A stretch of 64,000 nt of DNA from Erythrobacter sp. (lineage in GTDB: Bacteria > Pseudomonadota > Alphaproteobacteria > Sphingomonadales > Sphingomonadaceae), in NCBI GenBank assembly GCA_009993605.1, contig JAACTB010000009.1, forward strand, positions 1 through 64,000, read 5' to 3'. The first letter of the stretch is position 1. Each line of letters begins with the position of its first letter. The notes beneath the pieces are model-generated. The model saw nothing but the letters and a program-made list of their open reading frames with translations, was not told the DNA's origin and searched no databases. This document shows, piece after piece, positions 6,899-8,206 of this stretch. Made by a program: the position numbers and the translations under genes.

Positions 6899-6912
6899 TC
6901 GTCAACCGGCCG

Positions 6913-6942
6913 CTTGCCGATTACAATCTTGTAATTGGCAAG
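6913..6942. promoter_or_regulatory. 30-bp near-perfect palindrome, candidate operator
   Basis: CTTGCCGATTACAA-tc-TTGTAATTGGCAAG: 14-nt arms, one mismatch, 2-bp centre; no T-tract. Confidence 0.6.
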
Positions 6943-7007
6943 GCCGCGCCTCCTGAGCCTACTGCCCTGCCCTTTGTTGCGGACGATGGTCCGGGAAAGG
7001 GTTGCAG

Positions 7008-7607
7008 ATGCAAGTGGATGTCAGAAAGATTTTTGGCCCGTGGAAGGACGGCTATCTCCTCGATCGGCATATCGTTCACAGCGAATATCTCGGCGAAGAC
7101 GAAGACGGCAAACCGCAATTCGACAACACGCGTTCGGAAGCGGGCGAGGCGCTGTTCCAGCTGAAATACCGTTCGGACTGGTCGCAGGTCAAAATCATCG
7201 CCCAGGCGCTTTTCGACGACATCATTCCCAATCTTCCGAAGATCGATCTGATCGTGCCGGTCCCCGCGTCCACCGCCCGTACCCGCCAGCCGGTGGACGA
7301 GATCGCGGAGGCGCTGGGCCAGCTCGCAGGAGTTCCCGTGAGCACGACACTCGTGCAGGCGAAGCCGCCATCGGCGGATGCGAAGCCGCTCAAGAACCTC
7401 GTCACCAAGGAGGAAAAAGACGCCGCTTTGCAGGGGCGCTTCTCGATCGATGTCTCGGTGCCGGTTCCCAAGGACGCGACCGTCGTCGTGGTCGACGATC
7501 TGTTCGCCACCGGCGCGTCGATGGGGGCTATCTGCACCCTCTTGCAAACGCATCCGAAGGTGGCGAGTGTCTATGCCGTCGCCGTCACCAAGACAGGAAA
7601 AGCATGA
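7008..7607 (+). CDS. ComF-like type I phosphoribosyltransferase-fold protein
   Basis: IDLIVPVPASTARTRQPVDEIAEAL and PRPP-loop-like TVVVVDDLFATGASM. Confidence 0.8.
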   Translation: MQVDVRKIFGPWKDGYLLDRHIVHSEYLGEDEDGKPQFDNTRSEAGEALFQLKYRSDWSQVKIIAQALFDDIIPNLPKIDLIVPVPASTARTRQPVDEIAEALGQLAGVPVSTTLVQAKPPSADAKPLKNLVTKEEKDAALQGRFSIDVSVPVPKDATVVVVDDLFATGASMGAICTLLQTHPKVASVYAVAVTKTGKA

Positions 7608-8158
7608 CCACAGTCTTCATCGCCGGATCGATCGCGATCAAGCGCCTGCACGACAAGGTGCGGCAGCGGATCGACAGGGCGGTGACGGGCGGCCTGTCCG
7701 TCGTCGTCGGCGATGCCGACGGCGCGGATACGGCGATTCAGCAATATCTGATGATGCTCAATGCCGAAAATGTCACGGTCTATTGCAGCGGAGAGGAACC
7801 GCGCAATAATTTGGGTGAATGGACGGTCAACCGGGTATTTCCCAGCGCCGCGCCGGGCACGCGCACCTTCTTCACCGCCAAGGACATCGAAATGGCGCAG
7901 GACGCCGATTACGGGCTGATGATCTGGGACAGCAAGAGCACCGGCACGCTCAGCAACGTCATGGAATTGCTGGCGCAGGAGAAGAAATCCGTCGTCTTCG
8001 TCAACAAGGTCAAAAGCTTCGTCAACGTCGCGTCCGTCGCGGATCTGCACGATCTGCTGACGCATATGTCGGATCATGCGCGCCAGAAGGCGGAGACGAA
8101 GATCAAGCTTTCAAAGCGCGTGGCAGCGCTGGGGCAGATGCAGCCCTCGTTCCTCTGA
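7604..8158 (+). CDS. SLOG/DprA-like Rossmann-fold nucleotide-binding protein
   Basis: VFIAGSIAIKRLHDKVRQRIDRAV...VVVGDADGADTAIQQYL...DYGLMIWDSKSTGTLSNVMELL; 4-bp ATGA overlap with upstream gene. Confidence 0.72.
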   Translation: MTTVFIAGSIAIKRLHDKVRQRIDRAVTGGLSVVVGDADGADTAIQQYLMMLNAENVTVYCSGEEPRNNLGEWTVNRVFPSAAPGTRTFFTAKDIEMAQDADYGLMIWDSKSTGTLSNVMELLAQEKKSVVFVNKVKSFVNVASVADLHDLLTHMSDHARQKAETKIKLSKRVAALGQMQPSFL

Positions 8159-8206
8159 CAGGGTGCGCCGCCGGGTCACGCTGATCCGGCGCGCCGTCTC
8201 CGATTG

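What the first reader, a model, noticed from the sequence alone, without database searches (positions are those of the whole stretch)
7008..8158. Coupled ComF-like phosphoribosyltransferase + SLOG/DprA-like Rossmann gene pair: candidate two-gene nucleotide-metabolite module
Seen: the two genes overlap by 4 bp (ATGA at 7604-7607), are preceded by a ~110-bp intergenic gap and are flanked by unrelated housekeeping genes, so they read as an autonomous two-gene unit. The first carries ComF-like VPVPASTARTRQ and a PRPP-loop-like VVVVDDLFATGAS. The second has a DprA/SLOG-like GDADGADTAI motif. Knowledge: PRTases make or break N-glycosidic bonds on PRPP; the SLOG superfamily (DprA, LOG, YspA-type) binds nucleotides/nucleic acids, and some members occur in nucleotide-signalling conflict systems. 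Inference: the pair could synthesise/salvage and then sense or hydrolyse a modified nucleotide, or act in competence/DNA processing (ComF and DprA are both competence proteins).
Basis: partly seen in the sequence, partly recalled or inferred. Interest (0 to 1): 0.7.

Follow-up and report, generated by a model that had tools for sequence, protein, structure and literature searches.

The report
Compact phosphoribosyltransferase–SLOG toxin–antitoxin candidate
Two overlapping small genes form a mobile unit, probably a poison enzyme and its matching antidote that guards against phages or plasmid loss; it resembles two known defence systems but is a smaller, separate version that is common on plasmids and prophages and that the defence-gene catalogue searched here does not recognise as a pair.

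Summary
The pair is real at the stated coordinates: a PRTase (7008-7607) overlapping a SLOG-fold gene (7604-8158). It is not a competence or salvage operon. It is a mobile two-gene module. Of 80 species-level relatives, 64 keep an intact PRTase within 10 bp upstream of the SLOG gene; the SLOG genes are 54-78% identical to the window's and span several phyla. The module sits on conjugative plasmids, in prophages (including the P2 gpA-gpQ defence hotspot) and on integrated elements, and was found in 1 of 151 genomes of its own order. Congeners show the empty site. The PRTase matches defence toxins PsyrT and ShosT. The SLOG model's best PDB match is the antitoxin ShosA. In a separate clade the SLOG carries a C-terminal antitoxin-type HTH; those loci have a conserved ATACAA-N4-TTGTAT palindrome before the PRTase gene (17/25 exact, against 2/52 HTH-less loci, one of them the window). 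Best explanation: a toxin-first toxin-antitoxin/abortive-infection module of the PRTase + DprA-like class, in which the SLOG protein holds the PRTase toxin. It fails the membership tests of ShosTA and PsyrTA, so it is a new variant. Toxicity, neutralisation, trigger and chemistry are inferred, not shown.

The parts
6913..6942 (.). near-perfect palindrome CTTGCCGATTACAATCTTGTAATTGGCAAG with core TTACAATCTTGTAA (6921-6934), candidate operator; overlaps a -10-like TACAAT (6922-6927)
   Evidence: core shared with L036; related ATACAA-N4-TTGTAT palindrome upstream of 17/25 HTH-bearing relatives
7008..7607 (+). PRTase, predicted toxin; PRPP loop VVVVDDLFATGAS (residues 159-171)
   Evidence: D163, D164 and G169 invariant in 65 homologues
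7604..7607 (+). ATGA stop/start overlap coupling the two genes
7604..8158 (+). SLOG/DprA-fold protein, predicted antitoxin/sensor; motifs GDADGAD, PRNN, WDxKSTGTLSN
   Evidence: relatives fused to HTH antitoxin domains

Best explanation
The pair is a mobile toxin-antitoxin/abortive-infection module of the PRTase + DprA-like class. The upstream gene makes a PRPP-binding PRTase toxin with an intact active-site loop. The coupled downstream gene makes a SLOG-fold protein that binds and silences it. When an event such as phage infection (probably a nucleotide or DNA cue read by the SLOG fold) or loss of the genes removes the SLOG inhibition, the PRTase acts on nucleotide metabolism or DNA and stops growth. 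In many relatives the SLOG protein also carries a DNA-binding HTH and is predicted to repress the operon through an ATACAA-N4-TTGTAT operator. Shown here: the two folds, gene coupling, co-occurrence, mobility, the association of HTH with the operator, relation to PsyrT/ShosT and ShosA, empty site in congeners. Inferred: toxicity, neutralisation, trigger, target.
For: PADLOC PsyrT matches 33/34 PRTase homologues and ShosT 26/34. The SLOG model's best PDB hit is ShosA 8zva, E 1.4e-4, then DprA; profile comparison with ShosA gives E 1.8e-6. Fusions to antitoxin-type HTH domains: HTH_37 (1e-19) and 'addiction module antidote' dnstrm_HI1420 (6e-21). Operator palindrome in 17/25 HTH-bearing and 2/52 HTH-less loci, Fisher p about 3e-9, rows not independent. 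Erosion in 350 Pseudomonas genomes: antitoxin intact without intact toxin in 7, the reverse in 1. Located in the P2 prophage gpA-gpQ defence hotspot (hotspot defined in PMC9122126), other prophage, viral contigs, conjugative plasmids and an integrated element. Empty site in congeners. Precedents: RqlHI, where PRTase-loop mutation greatly reduces toxicity and the proteins interact (PMC4670107); DprA+PRTase in the same P2 hotspot protects against T7 and lambda (PMC9122126).
Against: No toxicity or phage data exist for this subfamily. The erosion asymmetry is not significant alone (7 vs 1, p = 0.07), and one Pseudomonas genome (G423) keeps the toxin without a SLOG gene. The SLOG protein is more conserved than the PRTase (92% of pairs), unlike many antitoxins. 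P0002 itself matches no antitoxin model, and the window's copy lacks the HTH. The neighbourhood survey had no control set.
Confidence: 0.8

Rival explanations
1. Two-component defence system that is not a classical toxin-antitoxin pair: the SLOG protein is a sensor (for ssDNA or a nucleotide signal, as the ThsA SLOG senses cADPR) that switches on an otherwise inactive PRTase effector; deletion of the SLOG would be harmless.
For: DprA and ThsA SLOG domains are among the PDB fold matches; Rousset et al. [quoted passage not shown] the SLOG is better conserved than the effector.
Against: HTH antitoxin fusions with an operator, and SLOG genes surviving without the PRTase more often than the reverse, fit a neutraliser better; RqlI and DprA homologues act as antitoxins.
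Confidence: 0.13
2. Nucleotide-metabolite module: the PRTase makes a nucleotide or base from PRPP, and the SLOG protein hydrolyses or senses it.
For: PRPP loop intact; SLOG fold related to LOG phosphoribohydrolases.
Against: No PGGxGTxxE LOG motif in P0002; distribution is that of a mobile, decaying cargo gene pair rather than metabolism (1/151 genomes of the order, plasmids, prophages).
Confidence: 0.04
3. Competence/DNA uptake pair (ComF + DprA).
For: Fold similarity to ComF and DprA.
Against: The genome has a separate DprA (C1:684376, E 2e-72) and a far better ComF match (C1:203955, 84 bits vs 27); presence is sporadic and mobile.
Confidence: 0.02

Closest known systems
ShosTA (PRTase toxin ShosT, DprA-like antitoxin ShosA; with the related DprA+PRTase system of P2-like phages)
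   Same: stand-alone PRTase next to a DprA-fold partner; both found in mobile elements, and this pair and a DprA+PRTase pair both use the P2 gpA-gpQ hotspot; best PDB fold match is ShosA
   Different: SLOG protein is 184 aa instead of about 300 and does not hit ShosA models; toxin gene first here, shosA first in L035; PRTase only partly matches the ShosT model and has its own N-terminal region
PsyrTA / RqlHI (RecQ-PRTase toxin, DprA-like antitoxin with HTH)
   Same: toxin gene first; PRTase domain is the best PADLOC match; C-terminal HTH on the antitoxin in many relatives
   Different: no RecQ helicase; antitoxin 184 aa without HTH in the window and about 280-290 aa with HTH elsewhere, against about 400 aa; does not hit the PsyrA model
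Retron type III PRTase effectors
   Same: PRTase used as a probable defence effector
   Different: no reverse transcriptase or ncRNA noticed in the regions inspected; partner is a SLOG protein
ComF / DprA competence proteins
   Same: folds
   Different: separate chromosomal homologues exist; mobile and sporadic distribution

Membership tests
ShosTA | partner is a ShosA-type DprA protein (PADLOC ShosA models) | tested here: not met
   P0002 gives no PADLOC hit at E<=1; true ShosA in L035 hits at 4e-103
ShosTA | PRTase matches ShosT model | tested here: inconclusive
   P0001 8e-9 over model positions 90-213/237; true ShosT in L035 2e-50
ShosTA | DprA-fold antitoxin | tested here: met
   best of 350,542 PDB chains is ShosA 8zva; profile E 1.8e-6
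ShosTA | toxic PRTase neutralised by partner; phage protection | not testable with these tools
   needs bench work
PsyrTA/RqlHI | RecQ-like helicase fused to PRTase | tested here: not met
   P0001 is 199 aa and covers only positions 537-685 of the 689-position model
PsyrTA/RqlHI | PRTase domain with intact PRPP loop | tested here: met
   D163, D164 and G169 invariant in 65 homologues
PsyrTA/RqlHI | DprA-like antitoxin with C-terminal HTH | tested here: inconclusive
   HTH absent in the window, present in 25 of 91 aligned relatives
Toxin-antitoxin module (general) | overlapping or adjacent two-gene unit on mobile elements with a candidate autoregulatory operator | tested here: met
   operator shown only as a conserved sequence, binding not tested
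Toxin-antitoxin module (general) | one protein toxic alone, the other neutralises it | not testable with these tools
   needs bench work
Competence ComF/DprA | the genome's ComF and DprA orthologues | tested here: not met
   better matches elsewhere in the genome

The most novel reading that the evidence does not exclude
A third, widespread and so far unnamed class of PRTase toxin-antitoxin/defence systems: a minimal PRTase with a minimal SLOG antitoxin that senses a nucleotide or DNA cue and, in HTH-fused forms, represses its own operon through a conserved operator.
Probability: 0.6. Interest if true: 0.65.

Novelty: new variant of a known kind. Interest (0 to 1): 0.55.

Why it matters
PRTase effectors recur in defence (ShosTA, PsyrTA, some retrons) but no held paper explains what they do. 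This roughly 1.15-kb version, with two proteins of about 200 aa predicted with high confidence, looks like the smallest natural setting in which to find the PRTase reaction and the cue read by a DprA-like fold. It is carried by clinical Klebsiella/Enterobacter plasmids, E. coli P2-like prophages and a gonococcal chromosome, and is annotated 'ComF family protein' plus 'hypothetical protein'. Its SLOG half has no model in the four family libraries searched, so scans with the PADLOC release used here would not recognise the pair.

Tried and rejected
Competence pair: rejected because separate ComF and DprA exist in the genome. Core housekeeping operon: rejected, found in 1/151 genomes of the order and congeners have the empty site. 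Direct family naming of P0002: no model in Pfam, NCBIfam, PADLOC or PHROGs. PDB sequence search with P0002 gave nothing credible. Phage collection search with P0002: no match, although IMG/VR viral contigs carry it. Erosion asymmetry as stand-alone proof: rejected as too weak (7 vs 1, p = 0.07). Palindrome as a general feature of the family: rejected, absent in 50 of 52 HTH-less loci. Neighbourhood defence scan: qualitative only, no control set. Literature: no held paper found describing a ComF/SLOG toxin-antitoxin pair; some key papers (Sberro 2013, Kimelman 2012, the 8zva report) are not held or were not found.

Full report
OBSERVATION. The two ORFs are exactly as described: PRTase 7008-7607, SLOG 7604-8158, sharing ATGA 7604-7607. 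The gap upstream is 109 bp. Downstream, a convergent lipoprotein gene ends 48 bp away.

WHAT THE PROTEINS ARE. P0001 hits Pribosyltran weakly (3.9e-5, below cut-off) and comF (1.9e-6, below cut-off). Its best specific hits are the PADLOC toxins PsyrT (5e-10) and ShosT (8e-9); over 34 homologues these match 33 and 26. AlphaFold2 gives pLDDT 92.0, and Foldseek ranks Helicobacter pylori ComF first, then many PRTases. The PRPP loop is intact: D163, D164 and G169 are invariant in 65 homologues. P0002 hits no family model. Its model (pLDDT 95.5) matches ShosA 8zva best of 350,542 PDB chains, then H. pylori DprA, LOG proteins and the ThsA SLOG domain. A profile comparison with a true ShosA gives E 1.8e-6 over the DprA core.

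CO-OCCURRENCE. A scan of 85,462 species genomes with a SLOG alignment found 389 relatives, of which the best 80 were kept. A PRTase gene or remnant was found at once by tblastn with P0001 in 76. In 64 it is intact and placed from a 4-bp overlap to a 10-bp gap. Hosts include alpha-, beta- and gamma-proteobacteria, Acidobacteriota, Myxococcota and single MAG contigs of Bacillota and Minisyncoccota; near-identical SLOG proteins occur in different orders. T and A pairwise identities correlate (r = 0.94 over 2080 pairs). On plasmids there are 101 SLOG and 63 PRTase records, with the two genes adjacent in the paired cases examined. Of 25 IMG/VR viral loci, 22 carry a PRTase next to the SLOG gene.

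MOBILITY. Only 1 of 151 genomes of the window's order holds P0002. In congeners the flanking genes (ATP12 chaperone and ABC-transporter lipoprotein) lie next to each other, 23 bp apart in one, or hold other single genes; in the window the pair sits between them. In E. coli the pair lies between portal gpQ and replication gpA of a P2-like prophage, the defence hotspot described in PMC9122126. It also occurs between a VgrG-like gene and ogr of another prophage, on an integrated element with trb genes and an ABC-three-component system, and on plasmids. Some loci have neighbouring genes resembling Hachiman, Lamassu or a SAVED protein; this survey had no control.

ANTITOXIN SIGNATURES. In a separate clade (24 of the 25 HTH rows lie in one supported set of 30) the SLOG protein is extended by an HTH: HTH_37 (1e-19), or in Agrobacterium the 'addiction module antidote' family (6e-21). 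Upstream of the PRTase in these loci lies ATACAA-N4-TTGTAT: exact in 17/25, within one mismatch in 20/25. It occurs in only 2/52 HTH-less loci, the window and its closest relative L036, with 2-bp spacing. Fisher p is about 3e-9, but the loci are related, so this overstates independence. The window's core lies in a 30-bp palindrome, 6913-6942, that no shuffle reached (0/60) and that overlaps a -10-like element. Because the window's SLOG has no HTH, what binds there is unknown.

EROSION. In 350 Pseudomonas genomes searched independently with each gene, both were intact in 15, the SLOG alone in 7, the PRTase alone in 1 and remnants only in 2. This fits a toxin lost before its antidote but is not significant alone (p = 0.07). 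Further PRTase remnants beside intact SLOG genes are, a set chosen by the SLOG gene and hence biased; in a relative from the window's own family (G172) the PRTase is split by an insertion.

MECHANISM. Precedent: in RqlHI the PRTase domain causes toxicity, mutation of its PRPP-pocket Asp removes most of it, and the DprA/HTH protein RqlI binds and restrains it (PMC4670107). DprA homologues are antitoxins in ShosTA and the syrTA/RqlHI systems, and a P2-encoded DprA+PRTase pair protects against T7 and lambda (PMC9122126). By analogy: SLOG holds PRTase; a trigger releases it; PRPP-dependent damage to nucleotide pools or DNA stops growth. Toxicity, binding, trigger and chemistry are inferred.

NOVELTY. 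It fails ShosTA (SLOG does not hit ShosA; order reversed) and PsyrTA (no RecQ), so it is filed as a new variant of the PRTase + DprA-like toxin-antitoxin kind.

Noticed in passing
window 6899-8206; L166, L169, L170, L172, L173: The gap between the ATP12 chaperone gene and the ABC-transporter lipoprotein gene holds different single-gene cargo in congeners (OmpA-like, PfpI-like, NUDIX-like and others): a small variable site.
   Followed up: partly
L028, L029, L030, L031: Related SLOG genes without an adjacent PRTase on Mesorhizobium, Sphingobium and cyanobacterial plasmids: orphan antitoxins, or a different function.
   Followed up: partly
L161:6016-8603: E. coli element with two tandem ComF-type genes before a SLOG-HTH gene.
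   Followed up: no
L034:4435-5546: Neisseria gonorrhoeae chromosome (filed as a plasmid record) carries the pair, unannotated in the gene table.
   Followed up: no
G423, locus L134: Pseudomonas genome with an intact PRTase and no SLOG gene downstream: tolerated toxin, inactive variant or different system.
   Followed up: partly
P0001 and P0002 homologues: The predicted antitoxin is more conserved than the predicted toxin (64% vs 57% mean identity), the reverse of many toxin-antitoxin pairs.
   Followed up: partly
L036:4100-5281: In the closest relative a GGDEF (diguanylate cyclase) gene sits between ATP12 and the pair.
   Followed up: no
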